From: a virus
IMG/VR virus record: IMGVR_UViG_3300010885_007370
Span: 1 to 38,841 of that record
Length of the DNA stretch: 38,841 nt
Reading direction: 5' to 3' (one strand)
The notes beneath the pieces were generated by a model. The model was not told the origin of the DNA and did not search any database. It saw only the letters and a list, made by a program, of their open reading frames with translations. Shown here piece by piece: positions 862 through 31,342 of the stretch. How positions within the stretch are numbered: position 1 is the stretch's first letter; every line of letters starts with the position of its first letter. A program made the translations under genes and the position numbers.

Positions 862-901
862 AATACCCCCGCTGGAGTTGGGTCCAACGGGGGTATTTTT
901 T
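862..901 (+). terminator. Rho-independent terminator at the convergent gene junction
   Basis: AATACCCCCG (862-871) pairs perfectly with CGGGGGTATT (888-897) and is followed by a T-run on the plus strand. The loop holds a smaller GTTGG/CCAAC stem. It ends the rightward operon 43 bases after its last stop codon. The stop codon of the giant leftward gene lies at 900-902, so the same hairpin also lies directly downstream of that gene on the minus strand. There the following T-tract is weaker, so termination should be strongest rightward. Confidence 0.85.
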
Positions 902-3900
902 ATTCTACATTGTCGTGCGTGATTGTCCCTTGCTTCCACTTTGCAAAGAAATCTTGCTGAGCTTTAACCACCATGGTGCTGTAATCCCTAAGCATTACAA
1001 TCTTTTGCTCTGGCGTTAGGCTACTGCTCTGTTGAATTAATTTTGTTTGCTTACGCTGTCTGCGAACTAATGATTCTACCCTGTCATAATACGGCAGAAG
1101 CATTCTTTCCTTGGGGTGGGAAATATCAATCTTATTTAACAGCTCAGCATCAAAATCAGCCAATGCATTTTGGCGCTGCATTTTATATTCAGCAACATTC
1201 CCAGCAACCTCTTGGAACCTAGCGCCAATATTCTGGTCCTTCAGTTTTCCCACAACCATACCAACTGCTGGGTTGTCGAGAAGTGGGTCTTGCTCCCTGC
1301 CCCCTGTCTTTATTTCCTTAGCCATTTTATTTGCTGGTATTAAATTATATACACTGTCAGCCATGCCGCCATAGAATTTACCAGCAGCACCAACGGTTGC
1401 AGCAATCATATAATCCATATCATCTGGGTAAAATTCAAATGCATCAACTCCAGTCTTGTGCAGCAAGTCAGCCACAGTTAGGCTAAATTCACTGGTTGTT
1501 TTTTTGTGGATTTGACTCTTGTATTCCCCTGCGGCGTTGGCCCTTTTCTTGGTAAATGCCTCGGGCATTGTGGGGTGGATAGGACGCCCCAGCGCATCAG
1601 TATTCCTAGCTAGCTCCTCGCCAGTTCTCAAAAAGCCCGGAGTGATAGCCGAAAGTGGATCGCCAGTAGACGTTGAGGTCCAGTGTGCATTCACGCTCAA
1701 GGCATCATTAAGGGTTAGCATAGCAGCGTGTGATGGCTCCATATCTCCCATCAGCATTCTAACGCTATTGCCACCAGCATTAATAATTACAGTTGGAATT
1801 TTCCAAGGCAACCACCATTTTGCATAGTAATCTTCATCGCCTTTTTCACCATGAATTCCCGGAATCATCCAATTTATTTTTTGTGCATTCGTCACATAGT
1901 CAGGCATCAAGGAATATGGATTGTTTCCAAACTCATCCTTATGGGTTTTGCCAATTGAATAATTCCATAGGGCATTGACTACCCCAAGAGCAAACAGGCT
2001 TGAGGAAAGTTTTATAGTTGCCTTTACCCCACCTCGAAGCATGGCGGTGATCATAGAGTTATCACCCTGAACACCCGCATTAAAGAATGGGTATAGTGCA
2101 TTTAAGGTTGTAGAGAATAGCCCCTTACGCGCATAGTTTCCGGGAAGGTGCTGAGCATACCAAGCGGCCTCCTTAGGGGACGCACCGTTTGCCTTCAAGG
2201 TTTTATAGATTGCAATTCGGTTTGACATATCCACATTGTTTGTGAAAGCCGATCCAGCCCGATCAAGCTGCAATGCCTTATCTTTAAAATAAAGCATGAT
2301 TTCTTTTTTGCTTTTGCCTTCAGCCCAGCTTCTCGAAAATAAATGAGCTAGCTGATCATTAAGATTTTCAACGCTAGACAAGTCAAATATTGGATTGAAG
2401 TGACCACCGTGGCCGCGCATCTCTTCAATCTCCGCCAAGATTGCAGGGTCTTTTTTGGTAATTCCAATCAAAGAAGCACCAGCTTCTTTTGTGGCCATAT
2501 TAGCTAGGGCCTTATCGGTCGTATTAAACTTAGGGCCAAGGCCAATCATATTGATTTTTGTTCCGCCAACCTGTTTGAAGTATAGGCCGACCGAGAACAA
2601 TGGATTAAGACCAATTGTCTTTGAGTGGAATTGCTGGCTCCAAGATTTTAGGAACGAGAATGAATCTAGGGTCTGGCTAAACTTATCAATTGCAGAAATA
2701 AACTTACCAGTCGATCCATCAAAGCCATTAATTGTGACCTGCATTTCTGGGGTTTTGATTTTAGTATAAACCTCTAGGCCATTGACCTTGGTAATAAATG
2801 AGTCTGGCTGGTTCTTATAATCCGATAGCACATATGAAACCTTGCCAGTCGTTGGGTCAACTTGCCGCGTTGGCTGGACGAGTTCGGGCTTTTCAAAATG
2901 GTGCATGATGAATGGATCATTGGCTGCATAACCATCACGGATAAGGTTCAGTAGCTTATTGCCAACTTGATTCCTAACGCCACGAGCGATGGTGTTCTTG
3001 TAGTCCGTGAATAGGTTGGGAATAATTTCACCAGCATATGATCCGCGACCAGTACGCCGGATGTATTCCTTACCCCTAACGCCAGTTGGGTTTTGCATCC
3101 CGCTGAACGCACCCCAGCGTGAGCCATCTGCAATGTTGCCGAACTGGTCCATGATCAAATCATCAAGCGATGTTTTGAGTGGGATATAAAATTTGTAGTT
3201 AGGAAGTTTTTTAAACTGCGTGGCCGTTAAATCAAACTTCTTTTTTATTTCGGCCTTCTTGACGGGATCAAGCTCGGTCTTAAAATCAACCTTCAGCTTT
3301 TTCATTGTGGCCATTAGGTTATTTCTGATCTTATCAAAATCATAACCAATGCCATTTTCAATAGCCGACCTGCGCTGCTCAGATGCCACAAACATTAAAT
3401 AATCATGTGCATCTTTCATAACCTTTTGACGGTCAACAGGAAGATTGTCCACCCAGTTCATTATGGCATTAGCTTCTGCGTCCGACATGCCCGATGCCAT
3501 CTGGTCATAGATGGGCTTGCCATTAGCATCCTTAGCTATCTCAATCTTCAGGACTTGACGGCCATATTTATTATATTCCACCGCATGTTTTGCGTAGGCA
3601 TACGCCTCATGAAGTACCACAGTGATCGGGCGATCTGCGGAAATTTCCTTGTTCACAAAATTGTCTAGATGGCCAAGGGCTTTTAGCTCCGAGTTAAGAT
3701 CATCAAGCCCAACATTGGCCCAGTCCCTTGCCTCAGACATGCGGCGCGTTAGCTCTGGGAACATTTTCTCATTAACCATTCTATGCTCAGCATGAACAGT
3801 TTGTGGGGCCACATTCGCTGCCAGAGTAGGAGTATTGTCTAGGGTCAGCTTTACCTTGTTGCCGACCAGAACGTCACGCTGAAGCAAGTCGATCAAGCTG

Positions 3901-6900
3901 TTTTGGTCAGTGAACAAGGTAGTACCAAACGTGCGGAGTAGGCGCATCGTGTCGGTGTCGGTAAAGCCCATCTTAGATGTGAGGTTGCCAAACTTTGCAA
4001 GCATCCCCTTATTGATTTGCCAGTCAGCCATAAGGGCGGACTCATAAATTTGTTGGGCTATACGAGCATCAGTCAAGCCTCCACCCATTCCGGGAAGGAA
4101 GCCCGGAGTCGAGGCGTTGGTTGGTGGTAGCGTTCCGCCCGGAGACATTTGCGCCATAGTGCCAAGCATGGTTGCTCGCGTAGATGCAAACTTTTCTATT
4201 TCATCCTTGGTAAATGCCCTGTCTGGAAGGTTCTTCTTTGCTGAATTTAATTCTCCATCCTGAGGCCCAAGAAGCATTTCATCCATTTTAGCTTGAGTTT
4301 TGGGGCCAATGGGTGACGTATCCATTCCAAGGCCAGCCTCTCGCCGTAAAGAACTTGGAAGCGCCCTTTCATTAAGAACAAAAATATTAATTGGCGAGTC
4401 TTGTCTGTTATCACCTATTTCTTCACGCATAAAGGTTGCGTCCCAACCCATTGCGTTAATCATATTAATGTCTTCCCATAGTTTCCATCTTCCGCGAGAA
4501 ACTTGATCAAAAAGGTTGGGGTCAATTTGTTCTATTTGTTCATTGGTATAATCGTTAAATTTGCTAAATGATTTTTTTCTTTTATTTATTTTTTCCTTTT
4601 CAGGAACTTGATCAGCGCCCTTTTCTATTGCCTTCATTTTTTCTACATAGGCTTGATAACTTTCTTCAAGCGTTTGCTTATCAATAGGCAAGCTAGCATT
4701 AGACTTTTCAGTTATTAGGTTTTGAATAATTTCATGATACTTGGGACGATTAAAGTCTTCCTTAAGCTGATTAAAATCATTTACAAAATTATTATATGCT
4801 TCATATTTTTGGTCAATCAGCTCAACCTGATAATTATTTAATGGACCAATAACATCGCTTGTAAACTTAACGGCCTGACCATCAAGCTTTTCAGCAATCC
4901 CACGAGAAAGCTCACTAAGGGCCGAAAGCCCATCCGCATGATTGCCACCAAAAAGATCTAAACCAAAATATGGCTTAAGCTTAGGCGCTTGAACCCTCGC
5001 CAAATTCTTTAAGTAGGCTAAAATTTCTTCTAGTCTTTGTTTATCACTATCTATCTTATCAACAGTGCCATCAATTTGATATTTTGAATTTGAACTTGGG
5101 TCTTGTGCTACATCTGATAAAAATTCCTCAAGCATCCTGCTATAAGCCTCTATGCTTTTTTGCGTTCTATAAACCTCTGCCACGTTATTTGTAATTGTTG
5201 AGGCCTCAGCGCCTATGGCAGAATTAACTGGAAGGCCGTTCTCGTCCACCTCACCTAATTTATATCCCAACTCATTTGCGGCAAAATTTATTCTCGTGGA
5301 TTTTGACATAGCTGTGCGCTCAGCAGTTGCTTTTGCTATTCTTTTTTCTATGTCTGCTATCTCAGTTTTTTTTGCAGCATAAGTCTCTAGCAGGAGACGT
5401 GTATCATTACCACCGGGAATGCTTTGAAGTTTTTCAAAATCATCAACTGCCTCTAAGTAATCTGTTTCATTCTTACCACTAAGGGGTTCTGACGACACAG
5501 ATTTAAAGTAATTTAAATAGTCTGAATATTCTACTAAGTTATTTTTTCTATAGTTAAAATTTAAATCAGGATTAAGAAATTCATTAGCTTTTATTTTTTC
5601 GGGATTAAGCGAAACTGCATCATAATCTTGGCCATAATTTGCCGAGTGAAACCCATCACTACCGTCTTGTGGATTTTTTAAGAAGTAGTTGCATACAGCA
5701 TTTACATCCTTTGGATTCCTATAGTCTCCAACTTTATTCGTAAGAACATGAACTGGCATGTAGGACACATGGTTCTTATTTCCAGTAAAGACTTCAAGCC
5801 ATCGCTGGTCAGAGGATAGTGATATGCCGCCATACGCAGATTTGTTAGTATCCCAATTTCTAATAAAGCCCTCATAGGTCTCTAGTTGCTCATTGGTCAT
5901 GCCCTCTGGCTTTGAGACGGCATGGTAAAACGTGAATGGGGTACGGTCATCGCTTGCCTTACCGCCAGCCATATAACTAACGGTAAGCTTATTCTTTTTA
6001 ATTAATTCTGCATCTTTTTTAAGATTTTTGTAATACTCGGCAAACTTTTTACCCATCAGACCCGAAGTACCGGACGGCATAATCTCCCCTACACTCAGGT
6101 GGCGATCATGAAAAATAACCAACATCTTGGTTCTGTCTTCTTCAGGCATACCCGGACTGCGGCTGTGATCGTCATTATATTTTAATCCGGGCACACCTGC
6201 CGCATCAAAGGCCTCAGAGACCATCTTGTTTCCAAGATTGATACGTTGCTGAAAAGAAGTTGTGTGAATGAGATTTGATTTTTGAAATGCCCTACTAGCA
6301 CCCTGATAAATATCAGCTCCAGTAAGAGCCTCAGGATTTTGAATTAAAGTATTATGAATGAACGAAATACCCCTTGCCAATTCCTCACTTGTATTTGGGG
6401 CATGTACTATCTCAGCCAAGGAGTTGAGAATTTTCCTCTGAACATCTGGGCTGGACTTTGAAAATGGCCTGTCCCAATCTAGAAGAACATCAAACTCTGG
6501 AGCATTTACCGTATAAAGATTTTTACGTCCATGTCGGGCTAATGTTTTTAAGTAATGCAACCCGCCACCCTTGGTCTGACTAAGGTAAAACCCATGGCCA
6601 TAGTCTTGGTTGCCTTCGCCAGTTCCAATTTTTGTTATGTCAAACTTTCTAAAATAATGTGGCGTACCATGCCACACCATCATCTTGCGCTCTTCACCGC
6701 CGCGACTTACGCCACGTTCACGCTTGCCAATCTCGCCCCTGTAGATGGCAGACATTAATCTGTCCGCCCCAGAGATTTTCATGGCCCGATAGATTTTAAC
6801 CATTCCATTAATGATTCGATTGAGCAAACCATTCTGAATGCTATTGATCTTCCTGTCGCCAGCAGAAAAATCAGAACCCATGTTAGCCACGGCTTCTTCT

Positions 6901-9900
6901 TCGATCTTTCGTAGCAGGTCACTAACTTCCTTGGCGTCCATTTTCTGCCAAGAAACATCATTGCCAAATTCATCTTTTGGCCAGTAGTTTAAGTGTGCAT
7001 CTTCTAGGTATGTTAGCTTGGAGCCCTTAGGCTTTCTAATGCCAGCTTCCTTACCAAGGATTTGAAATTCTGCATCTGAAATTAATTCAAGATCACGAAG
7101 GGCGTGAATGACCTCATGGTCCAGAGTCCGACCCATGGCCTCAATGATTTGAGCCTCTGTCATCCGGGGATGGATACCGTGGGCTAGGCGCACCAGTACC
7201 TTTGCGGGATTATAAGAGCCGCTGATCAAGTCGCGTGGATCACTATTCCACATGGCGTACTCAAGCTTTAGCGCCACATCCTTAAGGCCAAGGGCCTCTA
7301 GTCGTGCGCGAAGGGTGTTAAATATTCTGGATGCAGAGAAGCCCTCACCCAGAGCAAGCGGCTTACCCGCTAGTTCCGTGGCAATGCTATCTTCTGAAGA
7401 TTTTTTAGTTAGATTTTTCTTGTAGCTAAAAACATCGTTGTCTTCTGGGCTGAGGCCTATCTCAACCTTCTGAGTAGAGGCCAGCGCCTCTGCGCTTTTG
7501 TCCACACCCAGATCGCCAAAGGCAAGCTTCATGCCCTCAAAGGCTCTCTCGCGCAAGCCCTCTCGCGTTATGCCCGGTTCCTGCTTAGTGAGTTCTTGAT
7601 ACTGGTCCTCAGTATCTTGATGCTTAAATTTATCACCTTCAATAGTGAACCGCTCCTCAAGCGGAGTGTCGCTTGGCAACCTCCCAGAGGCAACCTTAGC
7701 GGCATTTTCATCAGCAAGCTTTTGTTGATAAAAATTTTCACGCTCAACTAGCTCTGGATGATCAGCAACTACCTCATTGTTCTCATCAAGGATACCGCGA
7801 TTCTTCAGCTCTGAAATTGCAGCCTCATCGCCTGTATCAATGGCGCTATTTAGCAAGCCCTCTAGTTCATTATTTTTAATTTCTGCTGGAGAAATTTGTG
7901 CCTGTTCCAAAACTGGAGCTGGCTCTTCCTCTATCGTGAACCTTCCCCTTGGCTCAGGAACTTCAGCAGCAAGCTCAGCAATAGGTGCTTCATTTTGAAT
8001 GAGGTCCGTTGGCTGTTCTTCTATATTAAACTTGCCTCTGTAAGGCTCATAAACTGGGGCAGCGGCCTCAGTGATTGGTGCGGCCAATTCATCAGCAGCA
8101 AACTTAATGCCCTCCATGCGCTTTTCTAGCGACTTGCCCTTTGCGGCAGGAAGTTCTTTGGCTGGATCAAGATGAGCATCCACGCCATCAAGGAAATTCT
8201 TTTTTGCCGCAGGGGTCATGCCTTGGGCCTCAGCATGAGCAACGGCCTTATCGCGGATGGAAGTTACGGATGGCTCAAGTGATAGTTCAGCGGGGATTGA
8301 TGCCGCTGCTTTGGCAGTTGTCTCTGCCTTCTCATTAAGGCCAGCAATATTTTCTGCACCAGCATATATATCTAGATGGGCTTGTTTAATTTCTGGATCA
8401 AGATCATTCCACCCCTCCATATAATTTGATGGGTGGTTCTCATCAATATGCTTACCATTTTCAGTCAAAATGTCAGCAGCGGGATTGCTTAAATTCTTTG
8501 CAACCTCAGTAATTTTATTTTCAGGAACAACTACCGTAGGGTCAATTGTGGTTTTTTGCTTCTTGCCTTTTCCCGTTGGCTCAGTTGTCTTGGGTGCAAT
8601 GGCTATGCTCACGGAACCATCGGGATTTACAACCTCAATCCCCTGACCACTCTCATACGCCTCTCTAGCTTGTTGCTGAGTGTAAGCTTGCTCGTCGTAA
8701 ATTGCTTGCTGCTTATTCTTTTTTACATCTTCAAGTTTTTGTTTAATTGGCTTGTACACTTCGCCGTGCAGCGCATGTGCGCCAGCGAACCCAGCACCCA
8801 TGAGGAATGACTCCGGTACACCTTCCATCAGAGAAATGTTTGGGTCAACCGTGGCCTTGGTCAGTACGTTACCAGCGCCAGTTAGGCCCGCAAAGCCAGC
8901 GCCTTCCGCAACCATGTTGGCTCCAGTCCTGCCAATTGCGGCTGCAATTGCGGCAAGGCCAGCCTTGGGTATCTCGCGTGATTTTATAAATAAGGCTACC
9001 ATCTCAGGGCTAATACCCTTAAGCGCCTCTTGCTCAATCTCGGTAATTGGGATTCTGCTAGCCACCTTAGACAAGGCAGACTCAATGGCCGGACCAAGTA
9101 CTGGAAGCTTGGAGAGGGCCTTAACGCCAAGCCCGGAAAGGGGAATTAATCCCATAGCCGCCCCAAGCGCCGTTTGGCCTACAACATTTAAATTGCCACG
9201 GGCCGTTCCCTCTTGACCCACCTCAGCATTCTTCTGTCTAGCGGCGGTCTCTCCACTACCGGCCATAGCAATAGCTGGCCCACCCGGAATAACGCCAGAT
9301 GCAATTATGGGCGCAAGTCCACCCATAAACCCAGCAACTTTTTCCACTGCGTTTGGATTTTGTACCCTATATCTTTCTTCAATATCCGCAGCTATGGCTA
9401 ACCTAGCATCCCGCTCTTGATTTTGAAGCTGCCAATTTCTTTCAGCCTCAGCTTGCTGCTGGGGATTCCTGAACATTTTATTAATGCCCAAGTTTGGATT
9501 ATCTGAGGCGCGGATAATATCTCCAACGCCCTCTATCGCCCGATTTCCCTCACTCAGCGCGGCGGTACCAAATTGTTTGAACCCGCCCACAAAAGACTCT
9601 GGACTAAAGATATTATGCTTGGGAACTTCGCCAGTGATTAGCTGTGAGAGCGAACCTTCTGCCTTGCCTTTTGGTTTTTGAGCAACTGGTTGAGGCGCTG
9701 GCTGCTGAATGACTGGTTGAGCTACTGGCCGCTGAGGTACTTGAGCTGGCGCTTGCTGAACAACGGGCTGCTGTTGAACTTGAACAGGCGCGCGGGGCAC
9801 AACGGGTGCGCGAGGTACAACTTGAATTGGCTGAGGATTATTGTCTGGATGTGCTGGATTATATCTGGGGCTATTAAGCACATGGTTTTTAATTTGAGAT

Positions 9901-9962
9901 TCTGTAAGCTTGGTATCGTCATAGGAAACGTATTCGCCATTAGGCGCACGAAAGAAAGCCAT
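900..9962 (-). CDS. Giant polyvalent phage protein (3020 aa): zincin motif, ADP-ribosyltransferase-like domain(s), LPD38-like C-terminus
   Basis: This single frame fills almost a quarter of the window. Visible parts by residue: 40-110, Pro/Gln-rich linker; 200-410, Gly/Ala-rich hydrophobic stretches; 949-953, HEVIH with a glutamate cluster at 1021-1023 (zincin-type metallopeptidase pattern); 1098-1285, HGTPH..F..FD, then GTGEG and YGHGFYLS, ending in LVIFHD (ADP-ribosyltransferase of the polyvalent-protein type). Residues 1347-1865 form a possible second such domain with a long helical insertion. Around 2121-2165 are AYAKHAVEYN and ASGMSDAEA. Residues 2430-2990 resemble LPD38, with NALYPFFNAGVQG near 2622. 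Phage polyvalent proteins are thought to be packaged and injected to counter host defences or modify host targets. ATG 9962 follows AGGTAGG, 15 bases after the preceding stop codon. The gene is last in the late operon, after other internal-virion-type genes. Enzymatic activity is inferred from motifs only. Confidence 0.9.
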   Translation of the reverse strand: MAFFRAPNGEYVSYDDTKLTESQIKNHVLNSPRYNPAHPDNNPQPIQVVPRAPVVPRAPVQVQQQPVVQQAPAQVPQRPVAQPVIQQPAPQPVAQKPKGKAEGSLSQLITGEVPKHNIFSPESFVGGFKQFGTAALSEGNRAIEGVGDIIRASDNPNLGINKMFRNPQQQAEAERNWQLQNQERDARLAIAADIEERYRVQNPNAVEKVAGFMGGLAPIIASGVIPGGPAIAMAGSGETAARQKNAEVGQEGTARGNLNVVGQTALGAAMGLIPLSGLGVKALSKLPVLGPAIESALSKVASRIPITEIEQEALKGISPEMVALFIKSREIPKAGLAAIAAAIGRTGANMVAEGAGFAGLTGAGNVLTKATVDPNISLMEGVPESFLMGAGFAGAHALHGEVYKPIKQKLEDVKKNKQQAIYDEQAYTQQQAREAYESGQGIEVVNPDGSVSIAIAPKTTEPTGKGKKQKTTIDPTVVVPENKITEVAKNLSNPAADILTENGKHIDENHPSNYMEGWNDLDPEIKQAHLDIYAGAENIAGLNEKAETTAKAAASIPAELSLEPSVTSIRDKAVAHAEAQGMTPAAKKNFLDGVDAHLDPAKELPAAKGKSLEKRMEGIKFAADELAAPITEAAAPVYEPYRGKFNIEEQPTDLIQNEAPIAELAAEVPEPRGRFTIEEEPAPVLEQAQISPAEIKNNELEGLLNSAIDTGDEAAISELKNRGILDENNEVVADHPELVERENFYQQKLADENAAKVASGRLPSDTPLEERFTIEGDKFKHQDTEDQYQELTKQEPGITREGLRERAFEGMKLAFGDLGVDKSAEALASTQKVEIGLSPEDNDVFSYKKNLTKKSSEDSIATELAGKPLALGEGFSASRIFNTLRARLEALGLKDVALKLEYAMWNSDPRDLISGSYNPAKVLVRLAHGIHPRMTEAQIIEAMGRTLDHEVIHALRDLELISDAEFQILGKEAGIRKPKGSKLTYLEDAHLNYWPKDEFGNDVSWQKMDAKEVSDLLRKIEEEAVANMGSDFSAGDRKINSIQNGLLNRIINGMVKIYRAMKISGADRLMSAIYRGEIGKRERGVSRGGEERKMMVWHGTPHYFRKFDITKIGTGEGNQDYGHGFYLSQTKGGGLHYLKTLARHGRKNLYTVNAPEFDVLLDWDRPFSKSSPDVQRKILNSLAEIVHAPNTSEELARGISFIHNTLIQNPEALTGADIYQGASRAFQKSNLIHTTSFQQRINLGNKMVSEAFDAAGVPGLKYNDDHSRSPGMPEEDRTKMLVIFHDRHLSVGEIMPSGTSGLMGKKFAEYYKNLKKDAELIKKNKLTVSYMAGGKASDDRTPFTFYHAVSKPEGMTNEQLETYEGFIRNWDTNKSAYGGISLSSDQRWLEVFTGNKNHVSYMPVHVLTNKVGDYRNPKDVNAVCNYFLKNPQDGSDGFHSANYGQDYDAVSLNPEKIKANEFLNPDLNFNYRKNNLVEYSDYLNYFKSVSSEPLSGKNETDYLEAVDDFEKLQSIPGGNDTRLLLETYAAKKTEIADIEKRIAKATAERTAMSKSTRINFAANELGYKLGEVDENGLPVNSAIGAEASTITNNVAEVYRTQKSIEAYSRMLEEFLSDVAQDPSSNSKYQIDGTVDKIDSDKQRLEEILAYLKNLARVQAPKLKPYFGLDLFGGNHADGLSALSELSRGIAEKLDGQAVKFTSDVIGPLNNYQVELIDQKYEAYNNFVNDFNQLKEDFNRPKYHEIIQNLITEKSNASLPIDKQTLEESYQAYVEKMKAIEKGADQVPEKEKINKRKKSFSKFNDYTNEQIEQIDPNLFDQVSRGRWKLWEDINMINAMGWDATFMREEIGDNRQDSPINIFVLNERALPSSLRREAGLGMDTSPIGPKTQAKMDEMLLGPQDGELNSAKKNLPDRAFTKDEIEKFASTRATMLGTMAQMSPGGTLPPTNASTPGFLPGMGGGLTDARIAQQIYESALMADWQINKGMLAKFGNLTSKMGFTDTDTMRLLRTFGTTLFTDQNSLIDLLQRDVLVGNKVKLTLDNTPTLAANVAPQTVHAEHRMVNEKMFPELTRRMSEARDWANVGLDDLNSELKALGHLDNFVNKEISADRPITVVLHEAYAYAKHAVEYNKYGRQVLKIEIAKDANGKPIYDQMASGMSDAEANAIMNWVDNLPVDRQKVMKDAHDYLMFVASEQRRSAIENGIGYDFDKIRNNLMATMKKLKVDFKTELDPVKKAEIKKKFDLTATQFKKLPNYKFYIPLKTSLDDLIMDQFGNIADGSRWGAFSGMQNPTGVRGKEYIRRTGRGSYAGEIIPNLFTDYKNTIARGVRNQVGNKLLNLIRDGYAANDPFIMHHFEKPELVQPTRQVDPTTGKVSYVLSDYKNQPDSFITKVNGLEVYTKIKTPEMQVTINGFDGSTGKFISAIDKFSQTLDSFSFLKSWSQQFHSKTIGLNPLFSVGLYFKQVGGTKINMIGLGPKFNTTDKALANMATKEAGASLIGITKKDPAILAEIEEMRGHGGHFNPIFDLSSVENLNDQLAHLFSRSWAEGKSKKEIMLYFKDKALQLDRAGSAFTNNVDMSNRIAIYKTLKANGASPKEAAWYAQHLPGNYARKGLFSTTLNALYPFFNAGVQGDNSMITAMLRGGVKATIKLSSSLFALGVVNALWNYSIGKTHKDEFGNNPYSLMPDYVTNAQKINWMIPGIHGEKGDEDYYAKWWLPWKIPTVIINAGGNSVRMLMGDMEPSHAAMLTLNDALSVNAHWTSTSTGDPLSAITPGFLRTGEELARNTDALGRPIHPTMPEAFTKKRANAAGEYKSQIHKKTTSEFSLTVADLLHKTGVDAFEFYPDDMDYMIAATVGAAGKFYGGMADSVYNLIPANKMAKEIKTGGREQDPLLDNPAVGMVVGKLKDQNIGARFQEVAGNVAEYKMQRQNALADFDAELLNKIDISHPKERMLLPYYDRVESLVRRQRKQTKLIQQSSSLTPEQKIVMLRDYSTMVVKAQQDFFAKWKQGTITHDNVE

Positions 9963-9977
9963 ATTAAAACCTACCTA

Positions 9978-11441
9978 TTAATCAAAAGTTAGGGCGTTTA
10001 CTATGCCGAGATAAGTATTATTGTCTTTGGTTCCGCCCTTCCCATCTGGAATTACGGAATTAATTCCAGCTCGCTCAAGCGCACTTCTGACATATCCGCC
10101 AGCAAGCCTTTTAGCATTTGCACTAGCCCTGAGATGTGCGCCAGCCATAAATTTATCAATTGCCAATTGCGTGTCGGCATCGGCCATCATACCCGGCTGC
10201 ACTGGGAACATTCGTGCTGCCATTTGTCCAGCCCTTTGCATATCGTTATCATATGCCTTAGCGTAAACTTCAGTTGCCTGAGCTGGGATTGCTGCTTGGT
10301 ATCCAGTAAGCGCACGACTCGTCGCACCCGTTTCCTGAAGTTTTGCCGTAGCCATCTGCGTCTGCCGCCCGAGAGCAGCATCATTAGATTGCCTTGCATT
10401 AGTGGCATTAGTCTGTCCAACGCTCAGCATGTTAGCGGCCTCTTGCCCAGCTAGTGTACGCCCGGTGTTGTATTGACTGAAGTCGCCTTGGCGTTCACGG
10501 GAACCAATATCCATAGATTGCATACGGCCTTGAAGGCCAGCTTGGCTCTGTCTTAATTGAAGGTCGGCCATACGATCTTGAAGGCCGCGCTGCTCTAGCT
10601 GCGCCTTCTGATAGCCAGACAATCCAGCACCCAAGCCCACACCAATGCCAGACAGCAATGATCCATTAGGTGCATTCATCATAGCTGCACCAGCTTGGAT
10701 AAGCGCCTGAGATGTTGGGTTCATCATGCCGGATATTTGTTTTTGGGCAGATTCAATTGGGGCTTCAAATGGTTTTGTAAAAGCACCAATGCCGCCAAAT
10801 TGATTTAGTATATTGGATTGATATGTCCCCAAATCTTCTGGCCGGGGATTATCCCTATTTAAGAAGGAGCTTGTCGATGTAAGATTTCTTAAATATTCCT
10901 CAGGAGTCATGGCTCCAAATTTATCAGCAGTACCAGCGGCTAATGTAGGAATACCGCTTGGTGTTCCATCCACATAATGAGGAATAGCACCACCATTAGC
11001 AAAGCCCTGAGCGCCAGCCATTTGAGCAGCCCCAGCAATACCCGCCGCTGGAGGTGCGCCCTGCGGCATCTGTGGCATAGAAGCCATTTGCGGAGCGCCC
11101 TGAGGCATTCTCTGAGGCATTGGAGGCATTCCCTGCGGCATACCCGGCATGCCCTGTGGAGCCATCCCACGAGCTTGCATCATTCCTGCAATTGCGGCTG
11201 GATCAATTTGTGGCAATGGCATCTCTGGCTGACGCATTTCAGCGCCTTGCAGCATCTGATCACGCACCGTTCCCTTGGGGGCAGTGCCGCCCATAGCATT
11301 GCGGATAGAGTCCCGCTTCTGCATCTCAGCCATAACCAAATAGGTCGGGGCTGAGCCAGAGGGAGTCTTTACTTCCTTGACAAGTTGGTCATCGCTAAGC
11401 TTGCTAACAAGGCCCTGTTGAGCTTGGATATTATCTTGCAT
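9978..11441 (-). CDS. Probable internal virion protein (487 aa), Met/Pro/Gln-rich
   Basis: The N-terminus (residues 12-55) has the pattern LSDDQLVKEV...PSGSAPTYLVMAEMQKRDSIR, which I associate with podovirus virion or ejection proteins. Residues 65-140 are Met/Pro/Gln-rich low complexity. GFANGGAIPHYVDG follows, part of a short motif shared with two other genes in this window. The remainder is Gly/Ala/Gln-rich and probably helical. There is no signal peptide or catalytic motif. The gene ends 15 bases before the giant protein and starts just after the 362-aa gene. By position and composition it is probably carried inside the capsid, but its biochemical role is unknown. Confidence 0.75.
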   Translation of the reverse strand: MQDNIQAQQGLVSKLSDDQLVKEVKTPSGSAPTYLVMAEMQKRDSIRNAMGGTAPKGTVRDQMLQGAEMRQPEMPLPQIDPAAIAGMMQARGMAPQGMPGMPQGMPPMPQRMPQGAPQMASMPQMPQGAPPAAGIAGAAQMAGAQGFANGGAIPHYVDGTPSGIPTLAAGTADKFGAMTPEEYLRNLTSTSSFLNRDNPRPEDLGTYQSNILNQFGGIGAFTKPFEAPIESAQKQISGMMNPTSQALIQAGAAMMNAPNGSLLSGIGVGLGAGLSGYQKAQLEQRGLQDRMADLQLRQSQAGLQGRMQSMDIGSRERQGDFSQYNTGRTLAGQEAANMLSVGQTNATNARQSNDAALGRQTQMATAKLQETGATSRALTGYQAAIPAQATEVYAKAYDNDMQRAGQMAARMFPVQPGMMADADTQLAIDKFMAGAHLRASANAKRLAGGYVRSALERAGINSVIPDGKGGTKDNNTYLGIVNALTFD

Positions 11442-11443
11442 GA

Positions 11444-12532
11444 TTAACCCTTACCTGCATTAGCAAGGCCAGCCGCACTAGTGATACCACCAACCAATTG
11501 CGTAACTGGGTTAGAGAATGTGCTTTGAACCGCACCAGTCTGAACTGGCTGCACGTTAAAGCCATGCAGCAACCCACTCATCATGTTCAGTTTGTTTTGC
11601 GGGTCTTCTTGTTGCCTCAAGTAATCCTGATAACCAACATCCAAACCAGCCTGTTGCTTGGCTTCCTGAGATTGACCAGCGGCGTATTGAGCATTGAGCG
11701 CAGCCCCGGCCATGGCTTGGCGTTGCTGTGCCAGTTGTGCCTGTTGAGAAGCAATTTGATTCTGTAGGCCAGCAGCGTTAATCTGATTGGAAATGCCAGT
11801 GTTGTAATTTTGAGCATTAAGGCCCTGCGTAGTCAGGCCAGCTTCAAGATTCTTCTGACCAACCGTGAGGCCAGCTTGTTGATTGCCTTGAGCAGCGGCT
11901 ATGCGCCGCGCTGCATCAGTTTGGTATGCGCCTAGGCCAGTGCTATATGCGCCTGACAGAGCATCAGAGATCATTTTATTTTGGGTCAGGTTGTAGTCTC
12001 GCTGAGCCACTTGATTAAGAAGCGCAGCGCGATCACCGCCAAATGCCCCGGCCTGAACAGCTTGAGCATTTCGTTGATTTGTTTGCTGGCCATATTGATC
12101 TTGCGCTAGGGCTAGCTGGCTTTGAATAACATTCTGAATATATGGATTCATGTAGGCCGCAGCTTGGCCCGGATCGGTAAAGGCTCCCGTTGTAACATCA
12201 GCCACACCAGCCATCTGAGGGGCGGCTAGGCGAGCTTGCATGGCCTGAGCAGCAGCTTGTTGCGCTCCAGTCATACCGCTACCGTAACCTTGAGAGGCAG
12301 AGCTTAGATCGCCCTGACCAACATCGCCCATTTGACCAGCAAGTTTGTATGCATTAGCCGTGGCTGCGGAAGTGTCAGCTAGCCTTTGGTTGAGGTACGG
12401 AGTATACCCCTGATTGGCCAAGGCCTCGCCTTGGTTAAGAACATCCATGGCATATGGGGCAAGCTCTGGTGGGAAGTTGCTTTGATATACCGTTTGTGTT
12501 TGTGGTGTTGAGCTTTTGCTACCTTTACCCAT
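11444..12532 (-). CDS. Probable internal virion/ejection protein (362 aa), Ala/Gln-rich helical
   Basis: The protein is rich in Ala, Gln, Gly and Asn. Around residues 125-175 it has YMNPYIQNVIQSQ, then NAQAVQAGAFGGDRAAL, a signature I recall from uncharacterised phage proteins of internal-virion or tail regions. Long Gln/Ala stretches (around 215-310) suggest helical bundles or coiled coil. The first 40 residues are polar and Ser/Thr/Pro-rich. Its start overlaps the end of the 145-aa gene by 8 bases, and its end lies 2 bases before the next gene, so the operon is tight. No enzyme motif is seen. The structural assignment rests on context and composition. Confidence 0.75.
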   Translation of the reverse strand: MGKGSKSSTPQTQTVYQSNFPPELAPYAMDVLNQGEALANQGYTPYLNQRLADTSAATANAYKLAGQMGDVGQGDLSSASQGYGSGMTGAQQAAAQAMQARLAAPQMAGVADVTTGAFTDPGQAAAYMNPYIQNVIQSQLALAQDQYGQQTNQRNAQAVQAGAFGGDRAALLNQVAQRDYNLTQNKMISDALSGAYSTGLGAYQTDAARRIAAAQGNQQAGLTVGQKNLEAGLTTQGLNAQNYNTGISNQINAAGLQNQIASQQAQLAQQRQAMAGAALNAQYAAGQSQEAKQQAGLDVGYQDYLRQQEDPQNKLNMMSGLLHGFNVQPVQTGAVQSTFSNPVTQLVGGITSAAGLANAGKG

Positions 12533-12962
12533 TTTGTTCCTCGAATAATAATTGACAAGTTGAGAAGCGTTCTTTCCAGTGCAACCGGGAAAGCTTCTTT
12601 ACCCATCCCCGGCGTCCGATGAGTTCAAGGCCAGCGCATTGATAGTGCTTGGCGCATATGATCAGTAATTCATTTGCCTGATCTATCCATTCGTCAAAAT
12701 CTTCACCTGCCAATTGCTCAACGGTGAGGAGCTTAATCTTTGGATACTGATTAATTTTTACTACTAACGCCCCAACGACTTGAAGCGTGGATTCGTCATA
12801 GACAACCCATAATGAAGCTAAATCTTTTATTACACTATTAAGGGTTTCCGCAGGAGTGGAGCGACCATCTGTTATGTCGCAGACTTGCTGAAGAAACCCC
12901 TCGACCTTTGGCCACACATCTGGAATTAGGTGAGGCTCAACGATACTAATCTTGTATTTCAT
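12525..12962 (-). CDS. GNAT-like virion-associated protein (145 aa), T7 gp13-like by position
   Basis: The compact 145-residue protein has an alpha/beta pattern. LWVVYDESTLQVVGALVVKI (residues 51-70) resembles the central strands of GNAT acetyltransferases, and a later GLELIGRRGWVKKL...F segment resembles the C-terminal part of GNAT-like proteins common in podoviruses. The canonical acetyl-CoA loop (Q/R-x-x-G-x-G/A) is not evident, so it may be an inactive structural relative. The start has GGAG nearby. It lies between internal-virion-type genes, the position of T7 gene 13, which supports a role in virion morphogenesis. The fold is inferred and activity is doubtful. Confidence 0.6.
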   Translation of the reverse strand: MKYKISIVEPHLIPDVWPKVEGFLQQVCDITDGRSTPAETLNSVIKDLASLWVVYDESTLQVVGALVVKINQYPKIKLLTVEQLAGEDFDEWIDQANELLIICAKHYQCAGLELIGRRGWVKKLSRLHWKERFSTCQLLFEEQNG

Positions 12963-12978
12963 AATAGCTCCATGAGCC

Positions 12979-15042
12979 TTATGCGGGCATCATTCTTTCT
13001 GGATTAATACGCTTGGGAAGACTTTGCTTGCCAGTCTTCTTGACCCGTACCTTTTTTACCATGTTTCGCAGCTTCTTATGACCCACGGCACTAGAGCCAT
13101 TTCCAAGGTGAGCCACAACATCAGCGGGGATCACATGCTCATCAGCCGATAGGAGGGCCGGAGCCTTGCCGTCGATTGTTGCGGGAATGGAATCAGAGGA
13201 ACCATCACCAGCCACAGGAGGAACAATCATGTCGCCACCGGGCATACCGGGCATACCGCCCATCATACCCATTGCGCTCATTGGGGGAGTTGCGCCGCCA
13301 TCGGCAAAGGCCATCTTAAGCCCCGGACGATTGTCAGCAGCACTACCACCGAATGGCATACCCATGCCATTGCCCTTCATCCCGCCACCTTCTCTGTCAT
13401 GATGACTGAAGAAGGGATTGCCGCCAGCGAATGGACCGCGATCATAGCCACCATTATATTGAGCCATTAGCATTGCTGGGCTGAAGCCAGTTTGCTTTAC
13501 CCCGGTAAGATTCAATCCGGGACGGGCGCTAACGCCAGCCATTGGAACTTGTCCACCATCAGCAAAGCCCGCTTGTGGCGTGGACTGCTGTGGCTGACCC
13601 ATTTGCTGACCCATTTGCTGCTGACTAAAAGCTTGCTGTGCGGCAAAATCCTGTTGCGGCATACCATTCATTTGTTGGGGGCTATTGGGGCCATTGCCAT
13701 AGACTTGGCCACTAAATGGACCATGAGTATATCCAGCCTGTTGCATCATTTGCTGAAATTTCTGCGATTGACCATGGCCCTTCATGGCGGGCTGGAGCGC
13801 ATCCATAGCGCCCAAAGTTATTCCCCTCATCATGGGATTGCCGCCCTGACCCTTGCCAGCCGGACCCATTTGCTGATTAGGCTGCGGCATACCCTGACCC
13901 ATCTGCATGGGGTTATTAAAACCTTGTCCACCACCCGGACCCTGCATACTTTGGCCAGCTTGACCCATTGGTCTGCCCGACTTAGCTGCTTGCATACCGG
14001 ATTGATTTTGTGGTTGAATATTATTTCCAAAGCTCCGTTGCTCGTTTTGGCCAGTGATGCCCAAAGCACGGTCTTGGTCGTATCTGCGGCCCAATTGATT
14101 TGGCTGTTGGCCCAAGTTGTTGACTGATGGGTCTGGCATATTGCGTGTGCCATCGGCCAGCCTGACAACATTACCGTCAGCATAACCGGGAACCTCACCA
14201 CCATCTGCGAATGTAGCGGCGGGTTTAAAATACAATTGTTCAGGGTCATAGCCGGGACGATAGCCGGGAGTATAGCCACCAGCTTCGCGTAGCTTATAGG
14301 GCGTTAGGCCGGGTGATGTGTAGGTAGGGGCCACATAGGGAGCTAGCTCTGGCTGGCTCATGCTAATGCCGGGAAGGGCAATTTCACCAGCCTTCATGAG
14401 GCCCTTCATGCCGCCGATCCCGCCAAGGGTATCCTTGAATCCCTGACCTAAGTTCAGGCCAGTATTGGTAGCTAAGGTTGGCGCACCACTTGCTCCAACT
14501 CTAGCAATACTAGCTGGAAGATTTGCAGAAATGTTGCTCATACCTGCATTACTAATACTTGCTGGTAAGTTCGCACCAATATTACCGAGCGCATCTGCAC
14601 CTTGAAGCGCAGCTTGTTGAGCGGCATTTTGAGCAACCGCCCCTTCTGCACCACCAATACCAGCGGCCTTAAGGGCTTGTGTAGAATTTGATAGTGCATT
14701 GCCGCCAGTTACCCCAAGAGCATCTGCCCCCGCCGCGCTAGATGCGCCAGCAGCAGCTCCAGCAGCAGCAGCCTGAGCAGCAGCCTTTTCAGCCTCTACG
14801 GCAGCAGAACCAAGACCACCACCAAAGCCGCCAAGCGCACCGCCAGTAAGGAACCCAAGAGCGCCACTCTCCAGCGCCTTCGTTGGGTCGCCTGTAGCCG
14901 CTAGTGTGCCAAGGCCTGAGCCAATGGACCCAGCCAGAAGCTGCCCCGTAATGCCCGACATGCCCGCACCAAGCAAGCCAGCACTCGCCGCAGTACCCCC
15001 CGCAAGAGAGCCTAATAGTGGAACGAGTGCTGCTAGAGCCAT
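12979..15042 (-). CDS. Probable internal virion protein (687 aa) with C-terminal PADVV..LGNGS motif
   Basis: The N-terminus (residues 1-150) is extremely Ala/Gly-rich and hydrophobic, like membrane-active ejection proteins. A middle region of about 300 residues is Gly/Met/Gln/Pro-rich low complexity. It contains three FADGG units plus a GYADG. The C-terminus has ALLSADEHVIPADVVAHLG and then NGSS, followed by a basic tail. It matches a recurring phage virion pattern (P..LS.GE.V.PADVV..LGNGS). AGAAGGAAA precedes the ATG. Upstream is an 87-base gap that could hold a weak promoter. This is probably a packaged or tail-associated protein; its molecular role is unknown. Confidence 0.75.
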   Translation of the reverse strand: MALAALVPLLGSLAGGTAASAGLLGAGMSGITGQLLAGSIGSGLGTLAATGDPTKALESGALGFLTGGALGGFGGGLGSAAVEAEKAAAQAAAAGAAAGASSAAGADALGVTGGNALSNSTQALKAAGIGGAEGAVAQNAAQQAALQGADALGNIGANLPASISNAGMSNISANLPASIARVGASGAPTLATNTGLNLGQGFKDTLGGIGGMKGLMKAGEIALPGISMSQPELAPYVAPTYTSPGLTPYKLREAGGYTPGYRPGYDPEQLYFKPAATFADGGEVPGYADGNVVRLADGTRNMPDPSVNNLGQQPNQLGRRYDQDRALGITGQNEQRSFGNNIQPQNQSGMQAAKSGRPMGQAGQSMQGPGGGQGFNNPMQMGQGMPQPNQQMGPAGKGQGGNPMMRGITLGAMDALQPAMKGHGQSQKFQQMMQQAGYTHGPFSGQVYGNGPNSPQQMNGMPQQDFAAQQAFSQQQMGQQMGQPQQSTPQAGFADGGQVPMAGVSARPGLNLTGVKQTGFSPAMLMAQYNGGYDRGPFAGGNPFFSHHDREGGGMKGNGMGMPFGGSAADNRPGLKMAFADGGATPPMSAMGMMGGMPGMPGGDMIVPPVAGDGSSDSIPATIDGKAPALLSADEHVIPADVVAHLGNGSSAVGHKKLRNMVKKVRVKKTGKQSLPKRINPERMMPA

Positions 15043-15130: not shown

Positions 15131-15604
15131 TTAATTGCTCTCATATGAGCCACTAATAACATATGTGTGGCCATTTATAATTGCATCAACTCCAGCATAA
15201 TCTTTTATTGTCACACCCGAGGCTAACGTAGAATAATAGGAACTAAGTGAATGTTCATTTGTGGTATCTATTCCAGAGCAGGAAAATGCATAGGTCGGAA
15301 CTGTTGGGAGGGTGAGCAGTATTGCACTTGCTCCACCAGTGTTTGTATTAACGGTAAATGAAACATTAAACGTAACGGTTCTGTTTAATCTTGACCATCT
15401 GGCATAATTTAACGTGTATGTAAATGTTGCCTTGGACGGTGCTGTAATGGTTGGGACATATGAACTCCACCTATTTACGACACCAAGAACATTAGCAATA
15501 GTTGTAAAGTTTTGATCTATAGCTCTAATGCGACTTGACTCATGTGTTTGGTTGTATTCTTCCCGCGATGCGGGCATTGGTTGGTATTGAATAAATGTAG
15601 CCAT
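15131..15604 (-). CDS. Short tail-fibre/adhesin-like protein (157 aa)
   Basis: Residues 1-40 are polar and helical (SREEYNQTHESSRIRAID). They lead into a Thr/Ser/Asn-rich, beta-strand-like region from about residue 45 to the end, with alternating hydrophobic residues typical of trimeric fibre tips. There is no catalytic motif. The ATG overlaps the stop of the gp10-like gene as TAATG, so translation is probably coupled. Position just after a gp10-like tail protein suggests a small tail appendage or receptor-contact protein. Other beta-rich virion proteins cannot be excluded. Confidence 0.6.
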   Translation of the reverse strand: MATFIQYQPMPASREEYNQTHESSRIRAIDQNFTTIANVLGVVNRWSSYVPTITAPSKATFTYTLNYARWSRLNRTVTFNVSFTVNTNTGGASAILLTLPTVPTYAFSCSGIDTTNEHSLSSYYSTLASGVTIKDYAGVDAIINGHTYVISGSYESN

Positions 15605-17472
15605 TATCTTTGACCATCACTTCTTGCGCTAAACCTTTGCTTGCCAAGCCTCCACCAAACACCAGCCTGACCAGAGCTTTCAACCCGGAATACAAAGTGA
15701 CGACCGCGTATTCTTACGGGAAGATATTGAGTAAATTGCTCTACCGTTATGCTAGTGACCTTGGTCACTGGAAGGGCATCGGAATTAAAATAAGGCCCGC
15801 CGGGATAATCCTTTGGCGTTACGGTATATACCACACTGGGATATTGAGTTGTGGATTCGGAGAATGTTATGTCTGGAATAATGCGGCTAACAAATATAAA
15901 CTTATCCCCATCCTCAAGCTCAATTGGCCCGCTTTCTATATAGGCATCTATTGGTGATGGCGGGCTTGTTGATCCATCATCCAGTCCGGTCTCGTGGTAA
16001 TACAAATACCCATCAGTGGAATATGCAGTTGGATAAGTTTCCGTTCCATTATCCGCCCAAGCTGTTCGGTTCAAAGTTCCGGTGAACCAAACATCATCCA
16101 CATAATTATAGACAACATAGCTATCATTTTCAGTTGCCATGTTAGACGGATAGAAGAACCACACTTCCCGATATAGGGAATTGGTTGATGCATAAACCTT
16201 GTATGATTGATCTAGGTTAATATTGCCAAATACCTTTTCCCGCACTGAGCATGGCATTGTCTTAAGCGTACCATCGTAGAGATAGAAATTTTCCCTACCC
16301 ATCCACATGGCAAAGTTACCAAATGTTGTTGCGGCATTTGGGCTGATAATATCAATATTTGGACTCAGCACATTTTGGCCATACCCAAGATCGCCGCCCA
16401 CATAAAGAAGGGCGTGAAGGGATGATTCAGTCCAAACTAGAATTTGTCCCGTGGCAATCTTGGCGCAAAATATTTCGCTTCCTAGGGATAGCCTTAGCGA
16501 CCCGGCGGCATTTGTGATTGATCCTGTCCAATTGGTTGCAGATTCAAAATCTGACCAGCGGATAAGTAATGGGTCTTGGGTAGCCGAGCCAAGAGGATTC
16601 GCGCCGAAAGCGAACACCTGCCGCGACTGCGGGCCAATAAGTACCCAGTTTGCAACTGTTGGAGCATTAGATGCACCAGAGATAGAAGACAACGCAACCC
16701 CACGCCCATCAGCGCGATAGGCATTTGTGTTGCTCCAATAATAGATATTGCCCTGACGTTGGCAGAAGATTAAATCTTCACCAAAGTTATCCGATGACCA
16801 CATTCTAATTTGTGGCCCTAAAGTTGTGGTTGATGCAGGACCGCCATATGGCCCATCACCATATGAGCCAGCACCATAACCTGCGCTTGTTACCCGTGTG
16901 GCAAGGCCTACTGGATTCTCATATGCCGCTACTACTGCCGATCCGCCACCGGAGGCATTAGACGTAGCGGTGGTTGGAATTACAATTGAATAACTATTGG
17001 CATTTATATAAGTGATCTGCCAGTTACCATTGAGCGTTGTTCCCGTCACACCACCAAACACTGTGGCCGTAACACCGGAGAATGTTACATAGTCCCCAGT
17101 CTGCGCGCCATGGCTAACGGCAGTAACTGTAATAACATTTGTTCCAACGGCGGTTGCAAATGGATTGGTTCCAAGGGTTACTGTAACCCGAATTGGAGTC
17201 ACATCTGCTGGCGTACCACCATTAGACATTACATAATTTTTAATATTTGTATTGATTCCAGATTGCCGATTGCCCGCAACTGTAGTCCAGCTATGGAGAT
17301 TTCTGGCCAAACCAAGCATGGCAACTGGAGAATACTTTACCCATCCTTTAATTTTTTCTGGAAATAAAGAGCGAAACCTTACCTTGTCACCAGTGTACCA
17401 CCGCCCCTTGGCTGCATAGTTAGTGCCGTCATTCACCATTCCGGGCGGAGGATTGAACGATGAATATGTCAT
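15604..17472 (-). CDS. P22 gp10-like tail/DNA-stabilisation protein (622 aa) with an inserted beta domain
   Basis: The C-terminal two-thirds has beta-propeller-like repeats and the signature LLIRWSDFESATNW...AGSLRLSLGSEI. This is familiar from P22 gp10 and related stabilisation proteins that plug the tail after packaging. Late segments such as FYLYDGTLKTMPC and VWFFYPS fit the same family. Residues around 105-175 (ITVTAVSHGAQTGDYVTFSG, LNGNWQITYINANSYSI) form a small FCCH-like beta domain seen in other phage tail proteins, apparently inserted near the N-terminus. The start overlaps the Rz stop as TAATG. It probably works with the gp4-like connectors encoded further upstream. Family assignment is from recognition; the insertion boundaries are approximate. 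Confidence 0.8.
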   Translation of the reverse strand: MTYSSFNPPPGMVNDGTNYAAKGRWYTGDKVRFRSLFPEKIKGWVKYSPVAMLGLARNLHSWTTVAGNRQSGINTNIKNYVMSNGGTPADVTPIRVTVTLGTNPFATAVGTNVITVTAVSHGAQTGDYVTFSGVTATVFGGVTGTTLNGNWQITYINANSYSIVIPTTATSNASGGGSAVVAAYENPVGLATRVTSAGYGAGSYGDGPYGGPASTTTLGPQIRMWSSDNFGEDLIFCQRQGNIYYWSNTNAYRADGRGVALSSISGASNAPTVANWVLIGPQSRQVFAFGANPLGSATQDPLLIRWSDFESATNWTGSITNAAGSLRLSLGSEIFCAKIATGQILVWTESSLHALLYVGGDLGYGQNVLSPNIDIISPNAATTFGNFAMWMGRENFYLYDGTLKTMPCSVREKVFGNINLDQSYKVYASTNSLYREVWFFYPSNMATENDSYVVYNYVDDVWFTGTLNRTAWADNGTETYPTAYSTDGYLYYHETGLDDGSTSPPSPIDAYIESGPIELEDGDKFIFVSRIIPDITFSESTTQYPSVVYTVTPKDYPGGPYFNSDALPVTKVTSITVEQFTQYLPVRIRGRHFVFRVESSGQAGVWWRLGKQRFSARSDGQR

Positions 17473-30415: not shown

Positions 30416-31342
30416 TTACTTCTTGTCCTTCAGGAGTTGAGCCGCGTATTGTTGCGGAGTAATGCCAAGTCGCTTACACAACTTGATCTGGCTCTCCGAT
30501 AGCGTCACACTAGCGCGGGGGTTTTTTCCGGTTCCGCGATTGACCGGGGCCACACCAGCTTGGTTTGGCCTGTTTGGGGTTGTCCCAGAATTGTTTCTTC
30601 CGAAACGATCTTCTGGAAATTGTTGACGCATCATGGTGTCAACAAATTCGTAATATTCGTCAGTGCCCACTAGGTGCGGAACGGTCTGACGAACGTGAGC
30701 GTCGATGGCAAGGGCGCGTTCAGTCATTTCAGCATCCGTGTTTAGCCACGGATTTTCCTGAATAAACTTAGTCTGACGCCTCAACTCATCCGGGCTGATA
30801 GCAGCGTTCGGATTAGCTTGCTGCTGCGCTGGCTGAGCATATTGTTGATACGGGATTTCCTGAGGCGGTACATAATTCTCATACTGTACCTTTTCATTTT
30901 CAGCCCTGAACAAAGCCTTTTGGGCCTCGATCATCTTTCGCGTATCACCCTCAACCATAGCATCGGCATAATCTTGAGAGGCCTTCTCAACCTGAGCTTC
31001 AGCGGCTTGATATGCCTTAGCGACATAGCCTTGCTCATATTGATTAGACTTGCGATTCAGATTCTGCGCTGTTTCAAGAGCTTGGCGGGCAAAGGCTACA
31101 GCCTCGTCCCGTTCTCGAACGGCAGATTCCTTAGCGCGGCGTTCTGCGTGGAGCTTTGCAGTCTCCTTCGCAATACGCCGCCGTACCCGGTCGCTATACT
31201 CTTCTTCTGATTCAGTATCATCTGGATCATCTGAGGAATCATCTGGCGCGACATAACGGCCACGGTCTTTTTCTGGAGTATCATCCTCGACGGTAATGTC
31301 GAAGTCATACTCTTCTTCTTCCATATTGTGCGGCTGGGGCAT
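30416..31342 (-). CDS. Probable capsid scaffolding protein (308 aa)
   Basis: The N-terminal 50 residues are strongly acidic (EEEEYDFDITVEDDTPEKD, DDPDDTESEEE). A long charged helical, coiled-coil-like region follows (about 52-150), then a Gln/Pro-rich linker and a Gly/Asn/Arg-rich part. The basic helical end is QIKLCKRLGITPQQYAAQLL. Acidic front, coiled-coil middle and basic capsid-binding tail are the standard scaffold architecture. It lies between the GroES-like gene (TAATG overlap) and the capsid genes, the usual position. No protease motif is seen. The scaffold would guide procapsid assembly and then leave. Confidence 0.8.
   Translation of the reverse strand: MPQPHNMEEEEYDFDITVEDDTPEKDRGRYVAPDDSSDDPDDTESEEEYSDRVRRRIAKETAKLHAERRAKESAVRERDEAVAFARQALETAQNLNRKSNQYEQGYVAKAYQAAEAQVEKASQDYADAMVEGDTRKMIEAQKALFRAENEKVQYENYVPPQEIPYQQYAQPAQQQANPNAAISPDELRRQTKFIQENPWLNTDAEMTERALAIDAHVRQTVPHLVGTDEYYEFVDTMMRQQFPEDRFGRNNSGTTPNRPNQAGVAPVNRGTGKNPRASVTLSESQIKLCKRLGITPQQYAAQLLKDKK

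What the first reader, a model, noticed from the sequence alone, without database searches (positions are those of the whole stretch)
900..9962. 3020-residue polyvalent protein combining zincin, ADP-ribosyltransferase-like and LPD38-like parts
Seen: HEVIH at 949-953 with glutamates 1021-1023, HGTPH and GTGEG...YGHGFYLS from 1098, and a long conserved-looking C-terminal half with NALYPFFN. Known: phage polyvalent proteins (Iyer, Aravind and colleagues) join enzymes and LPD domains and are thought to enter the host with the DNA. Inference: this would be an injected effector acting early in infection, made late and packaged with the neighbouring internal proteins. The combination in a short-tailed phage operon end is worth testing.
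Basis: partly seen in the sequence, partly recalled or inferred. Interest (0 to 1): 0.75.

Follow-up and report, generated by a model that had tools for sequence, protein, structure and literature searches.

The report
Giant phage ejection protein carrying enzymes
An uncultured, probably short-tailed phage makes a 3,020-residue protein that, judged by its relatives, is packed in the virion and shot into the bacterium with the DNA; it carries a peptidase and an ADP-ribosyltransferase-like enzyme on a conserved carrier end, and is a divergent member of an already known class rather than a new kind of system.

Summary
In detail: one intact 3,020-aa ORF (900-9962, minus strand) with every motif at the stated residue. 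The zincin (aa 884-1052) is real: HExxH in 29 of 30 profile-matched rows, trailing glutamate E1023 in all, and a confident zincin-like fold. The ART-like domain (aa ~1094-1300) is real and widespread in phages (H and Y invariant in 89 aligned copies), but the third active-site position, Asn in 69 of 72 scorable copies, is Met1280 here, so activity is doubtful. LPD38 is only the tail of a conserved ~1,036-aa C-terminal module found in at least 507 viral contigs. The gene ends a conserved late cassette: a homologue of the 487-aa neighbour directly precedes the giant gene in 17 viral contigs and one cultured phage. In Burkholderia phage JC1 the corresponding LPD38 giant is virion-associated by mass spectrometry. 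Some relatives in this slot are ~1,390 aa with no detected zincin or ART, so the C-terminal module looks like the constant carrier and the enzymes like exchangeable cargo. Best reading: a late-made, encapsidated, DNA-co-ejected polyvalent protein; a new member of a known kind. Open and more interesting: weak, colinear similarity between this module and the unexplained C2 domain of the N4 virion RNA polymerase.

The parts
900..9962 (-). 3,020-aa polyvalent protein gene, last of the late gene run
9129..9338 (-). two Ala/Gly-rich hydrophobic stretches, peaks starting at aa 209 and 260, candidate membrane-active N-terminal part
   Evidence: Kyte-Doolittle scan; a similar stretch in N4 vRNAP at aa 118; weak evidence
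6807..7313 (-). zincin-like metallopeptidase domain, aa 884-1052
   Evidence: conservation; AF2 pLDDT mostly 83-95; helix, three strands, HExxH helix, Glu helix
7104..7118 (-). HEVIH metal-binding motif, aa 949-953
6894..6902 (-). EEE 1021-1023, likely third metal ligand among them
   Evidence: E1023 in 30 of 30 rows
6063..6683 (-). ADP-ribosyltransferase-like domain, aa ~1094-1300; H1098 and Y1126 conserved, third position M1280
4011..6062 (-). linker region aa ~1301-1984 without detected relatives
   Evidence: no convincing match; low confidence for aa 1350-1520
903..4010 (-). conserved C-terminal module, aa 1985-3020, the proposed constant carrier
1329..1922 (-). Pfam LPD38 match, aa 2681-2878
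   Evidence: E 2.7e-14
9978..11441 (-). 487-aa neighbour directly upstream; family precedes the giant gene in 17 viral contigs and phage Pra-JY27
11444..12532 (-). 362-aa protein, PHROG 4287 'DNA ejection protein'
   Evidence: E 4e-4; homologues E 2.5e-14 and 2.1e-19
12525..12962 (-). 145-aa protein of the cassette
   Evidence: same place and size as the acyltransferase gp65 of BcepIL02, homology to it not found
12979..15042 (-). 687-aa Ala/Gly/Gln-rich protein of the cassette
15604..17472 (-). 622-aa virion structural protein, PHROG 3287
   Evidence: homologue in ctvy9321 annotated as phage stabilization protein

Best explanation
It is a phage-type polyvalent protein of the LPD38 class: a large internal virion protein made late, packaged with the smaller ejection proteins encoded just upstream, and ejected with or ahead of the DNA. 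The ~1,036-residue C-terminal module is the constant part, most likely needed for encapsidation and passage. The zincin and the ART-like domain are cargo inserted before it. After entry the zincin most likely cuts the polypeptide itself, or a host protein, and the ART-like domain acts on a host target. Shown here: the ORF, domain homology, conservation of the zincin site, conserved cassette position. Inferred from relatives: packaging and ejection. Inferred only: cleavage, and what the ART does, if it is active at all.
For: C-terminal module related in at least 507 viral contigs and to 72 predicted viral structures at E<=1e-3, several named 'large polyvalent protein associated domain (38)'. 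Same cassette order 687-145-362-487-giant in relatives; a 487 homologue abuts the giant gene in 17 viral contigs (including one identical locus pair) and in cultured phage Pra-JY27, with ORF-to-ORF gaps of -49 to +14 bp. The 362-aa family matches 'DNA ejection protein'. JC1 gp69, a 4,515-aa LPD38 protein, gave 51 unique virion peptides, and its neighbours gp64 and gp68 were also found in virions (PMC9144972). C-terminal relative P0005 matches the DarB-like family phrog_10089 at 1.5e-28. Zincin conservation and fold. Forms with no detected zincin or ART exist in the same slot (L046 1,390 aa, L055 1,385 aa). One other contig, L142, has the same zincin-ART-C-terminal order. N4 vRNAP, also last of its late gene run after gp52 and gp51, is ejected with two smaller proteins (PMC12633501).
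Against: No virion data for this phage, which is known only from a 38.8-kb record. No N-terminal relatives found. M1280 replaces the Asn of relatives. No solved structure resembles the C-terminal module. Foldseek E-values for the zincin/ART model are weak, best 0.03, and the model's pTM is 0.47.
Confidence: 0.8

Rival explanations
1. The protein is mainly a structural ejection protein that builds or gates the trans-envelope channel; the ART is a decayed passenger and the zincin only matures the protein.
For: M1280 at the third ART position; constant C-terminal module and forms with no detected enzyme domains in the same slot; cassette of ejection-like genes.
Against: H1098 and Y1126 kept and the ART fold intact; some human PARPs with a hydrophobic residue at this position are active mono-ADP-ribosyltransferases (own knowledge); the ART sits in many unrelated phage proteins.
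Confidence: 0.3
2. It is a DarB-like anti-restriction protein that protects incoming DNA.
For: Relatives are annotated DarB-like antirestriction; P0005 C-terminus matches phrog_10089.
Against: The anti-restriction role was shown for P1 DarB (PMC9024508); the shared part is the C-terminal module, and this protein has no detected helicase or methyltransferase domain.
Confidence: 0.15
3. It is a non-virion late protein, for example a lysis-time toxin or superinfection-exclusion factor.
For: It is the last gene of the late run; no proteomics on this phage.
Against: Virion proteomics of JC1 (PMC9144972), cassette conservation, size and architecture matching ejected proteins.
Confidence: 0.05

Closest known systems
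Phage-type polyvalent proteins with LPD38 (Iyer et al. 2017, PMC5512222)
   Same: Very large, multi-enzyme, zincin as hub, ART cargo, LPD38, encoded beside late genes
   Different: Divergent: 21-26% identity to annotated relatives over the C-terminal part; third ART residue lost; LPD38 is only the end of a ~1,036-aa conserved module
DarB-like giant virion proteins of Bcep22-like phages (JC1 gp69, BcepIL02 gp70)
   Same: LPD38 near the C-terminus, last of the virion module, preceded by virion proteins of similar size; virion-associated in JC1
   Different: JC1 gp69 carries LT-like, helicase-like and LPD3 regions; none of these is detected here
N4 virion RNA polymerase (gp50)
   Same: 3,500 aa, last in its late gene run, hydrophobic stretch near the N-terminus, zincin C1 followed by a large helical C2, ejected
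   Different: RNA polymerase as central domain; C2 similarity to this C-terminal module is only suggestive
Phage T4 Alt
   Same: Head-packaged, injected ADP-ribosyltransferase as a model of use
   Different: Single-purpose protein; different ART family; no zincin or LPD38

Membership tests
LPD38 phage polyvalent protein | LPD38 domain above curated cut-off | tested here: met
   54.1 bits against cut-off 27
LPD38 phage polyvalent protein | two or more unrelated domains in one chain | tested here: met
   zincin, ART-like, LPD38 module
LPD38 phage polyvalent protein | encoded beside virion late genes | tested here: met
   terminase, portal, capsid and structural genes on the same strand
LPD38 phage polyvalent protein | packaged and transferred with DNA | not testable with these tools
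   shown as virion-associated only for relatives (PMC9144972)
zincin-like MPTase of polyvalent proteins | HExxH helix plus Glu on a following helix, three-stranded sheet, N-terminal helix | tested here: met
zincin-like MPTase of polyvalent proteins | match to a named peptidase family or solved zincin | tested here: inconclusive
   no significant Pfam or PDB sequence match; one weak top fold match, to an edema factor-containing complex, at E 0.03
ART-PolyVal (PF18760) | score above curated cut-off | tested here: not met
   window 13.6 to 17.7 bits against 31.2; relative L089 reaches 32.1
ART-PolyVal (PF18760) | homology to accepted members through a profile | tested here: met
   the phage ART profile grown here matches the window, best segment 4e-26, and also covers L089
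Tox-ART-HYD2-like ART of polyvalent proteins | H in strand 1 and Y in strand 2 | tested here: met
   H1098, Y1126
Tox-ART-HYD2-like ART of polyvalent proteins | Asp in strand 5 | tested here: not met
   M1280 in strand 5; 69 of 72 scorable copies have Asn, 2 Gly; column assignment is inferred
N4-like virion RNA polymerase | single-subunit RNAP domain | tested here: not met
   no PHROG 2206 match in the window protein
P1 DarB-type antirestriction | protection of DNA from type I restriction | not testable with these tools
   needs a culture

The most novel reading that the evidence does not exclude
The C-terminal module of LPD38 polyvalent and DarB-like proteins is homologous to the C2 domain of the N4 virion RNA polymerase, which a 2025 preprint (PMC12633501) reports as without structural relatives. 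N4 vRNAP would then be one case of a general ejectable carrier in which the cargo happens to be an RNA polymerase and in other phages is an ART, peptidase, methyltransferase or nothing. Profile-profile scores are weak (best local P 0.0026 to 0.017, 0.04 with one changed setting) but beat all column-shuffled controls, and the motif falls at a consistent place. An N4-type zincin also occurs in an LPD38 protein (P0005, E 3e-22).
Probability: 0.35. Interest if true: 0.7.

Novelty: new member of a known kind. Interest (0 to 1): 0.37.

Why it matters
Giant ejected proteins are among the largest phage gene products and mostly uncharacterised. This case separates a constant carrier (the C-terminal module, with LPD38 only at its end) from exchangeable cargo, and shows natural small versions at the same place in the same gene cassette. 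That makes the carrier idea directly testable: which part is enough to be packaged and ejected. If the carrier is shared with N4 vRNAP, one mechanism would cover both classes.

Tried and rejected
A second ART-like domain at aa 1335-1510, suspected by eye, has no support: ART profile score -2.9 bits, no PDB sequence match, low AF2 confidence. Apparent hits of aa 301-550 and 1651-1900 in an iterative search were weak and short on a single pass. First zincin+ART alignment A5 was discarded because MAFFT laid ART rows over the zincin; A7 was checked column by column. Profile match of the C-terminus to influenza HA2 is chance. Viral-contig scans with the whole protein and with the ART piece alone found nothing; alignments were needed. 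The genome-contig scan gave one locus, a Porticoccaceae MAG, so the host stays unknown. Homology of the 145-, 362- and 487-aa neighbours to BcepIL02 genes was not detected: only position and size agree there.

Full report
Observation. The ORF at 900-9962 is on the minus strand, starts with ATG and is open for 3,020 residues. The window is the whole of one virus record of 38,841 bases; it may be a fragment.

Context. On the same strand lie a terminase large subunit, portal, Mu gpT-like major head protein, tail proteins, endolysin and virion structural proteins. No tape-measure protein was recognised among the genes scanned, which suits a short-tailed phage but does not prove it. The giant gene is the last long minus-strand gene. 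Directly upstream are genes of 487, 362, 145 and 687 aa. The 362-aa product matches PHROG 4287, DNA ejection protein (E 4e-4; its homologues 2.5e-14 and 2.1e-19). In relatives the order 687-145-362-487-giant recurs, and a 487 homologue abuts the giant gene in 17 viral contigs (L012 and L014 having identical coordinates) and in the cultured Planktothrix phage Pra-JY27, with ORF-to-ORF gaps of -49 to +14 bp. BcepIL02 shows a similar layout, agreeing by position and size only.

Zincin. A profile grown from aa 880-1060 matches 29 relatives besides the window. HExxH is kept in 29 of 30 rows and E1023 in all 30. AF2 on an alignment of 36 rows gives, for the first ~165 residues of the model (aa 870 onward), block means mostly 83-95, with a helix, three strands, a helix carrying HExxH and a later helix carrying the glutamates, the arrangement described for polyvalent-protein MPTases (PMC5512222). 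No named peptidase family matches significantly.

ART-like domain. A profile started from the window matches proteins in many phages; an alignment-based scan found at least 530 contigs with relatives. H1098 and Y1126 are invariant in 89 aligned copies. Relatives score with Pfam ART-PolyVal, one (L089) above its cut-off; the window itself does not reach it. A profile of six members matches PARP14 at E 0.004 over the H and Y motifs, and Foldseek lists Xre-RES and PARP chains near the top, all with weak E-values. On strand 5 of the model the family has Asn (69 of 72 scorable copies) and the window has Met1280. Iyer et al. give Asp in strand 5 for the prototype. That this column is the third catalytic position is my inference.

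C-terminal module. AF2 of aa 1985-3020 with 58 rows gives pTM 0.72 and mean pLDDT 73.8. Nothing in the PDB matches. BFVD gives 72 matches at E<=1e-3, the best 8.5e-34, several named large polyvalent protein associated domain or LPD38. At least 507 viral contigs carry it. In most of the first 80 loci it is the conserved part, the zincin is in about 30 and the ART in few. In L046 and L055 the protein in this slot is only 1,390 and 1,385 aa, with no zincin or ART detected. In L019, L022 and L023 the ART and C-terminal module are a separate 1,232- or 1,233-aa ORF. These forms suggest carrier plus optional cargo.

Mechanism. Packaging is inferred from relatives: JC1 gp69 (LPD38, 4,515 aa) gave 51 unique peptides in CsCl-purified virions, with gp64 and gp68 also found (PMC9144972); P1 DarB is a head protein (PMC9024508); N4 vRNAP is ejected with gp51 and gp52 (PMC12633501). 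Self-cleavage by the zincin and host modification by the ART remain proposals of Iyer et al. applied to this protein.

N4 link. hhalign of N4-like C2 profiles against this module gave best local P-values between 0.0026 and 0.017, and 0.04 in one run with a changed setting. In the comparisons with column-shuffled controls (5, 40, 30 and 40 shuffles) the real score exceeded every control. In the first of these the best-scoring stretch was not the FFNASVQG region, which came second; with the profiles exchanged the best stretch was a different, implausible one. Direct HMM searches are not significant, though weak hits fall repeatedly just before the FFNASVQG motif; a reversed-sequence run also gave repeated positions among close relatives. 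I call this suggestive only. An N4-type zincin is clearly present in the LPD38 protein of Vibrio phage 1.205.O.

Verdict. The interest lies in the carrier-cargo layout and in the open N4 question.

Noticed in passing
window 31342-31719, minus strand: A GroES/Cpn10-like gene (PF00166, E 1.2e-8) sits between the portal gene and the 308-aa gene next to it in the late run.
   Followed up: no
window 862-897: Read by eye in the output: a 10-bp inverted repeat with a 16-base loop just after the stop of the giant gene, possibly the operon terminator. The terminator scan allows loops of 3-8 only and does not list it.
   Followed up: no
L019 and L022 from the start of the locus to ~8163; L023: The polyvalent protein appears split: a long ORF (2,720-2,721 aa in L019 and L022, open at the locus edge), then ~480 bases, then a 1,232- or 1,233-aa ORF with ART and C-terminal module.
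   Followed up: partly
L046:7109-11278, L055:8108-12262: Short forms (1,390 and 1,385 aa) in the same slot, with the C-terminal module and no detected zincin or ART.
   Followed up: partly
L005 (P0005) aa 1034-1133: An N4-vRNAP-type zincin inside an LPD38 polyvalent protein of Vibrio phage 1.205.O (E 3e-22; PHROG 2206 1.2e-13). The same type is in L087 and L111, whose long ORFs also carry the ART.
   Followed up: partly
window 24651-26813, minus strand: 720-aa protein matching tail protein PHROG 5939 in four separate stretches, perhaps repeated units.
   Followed up: no
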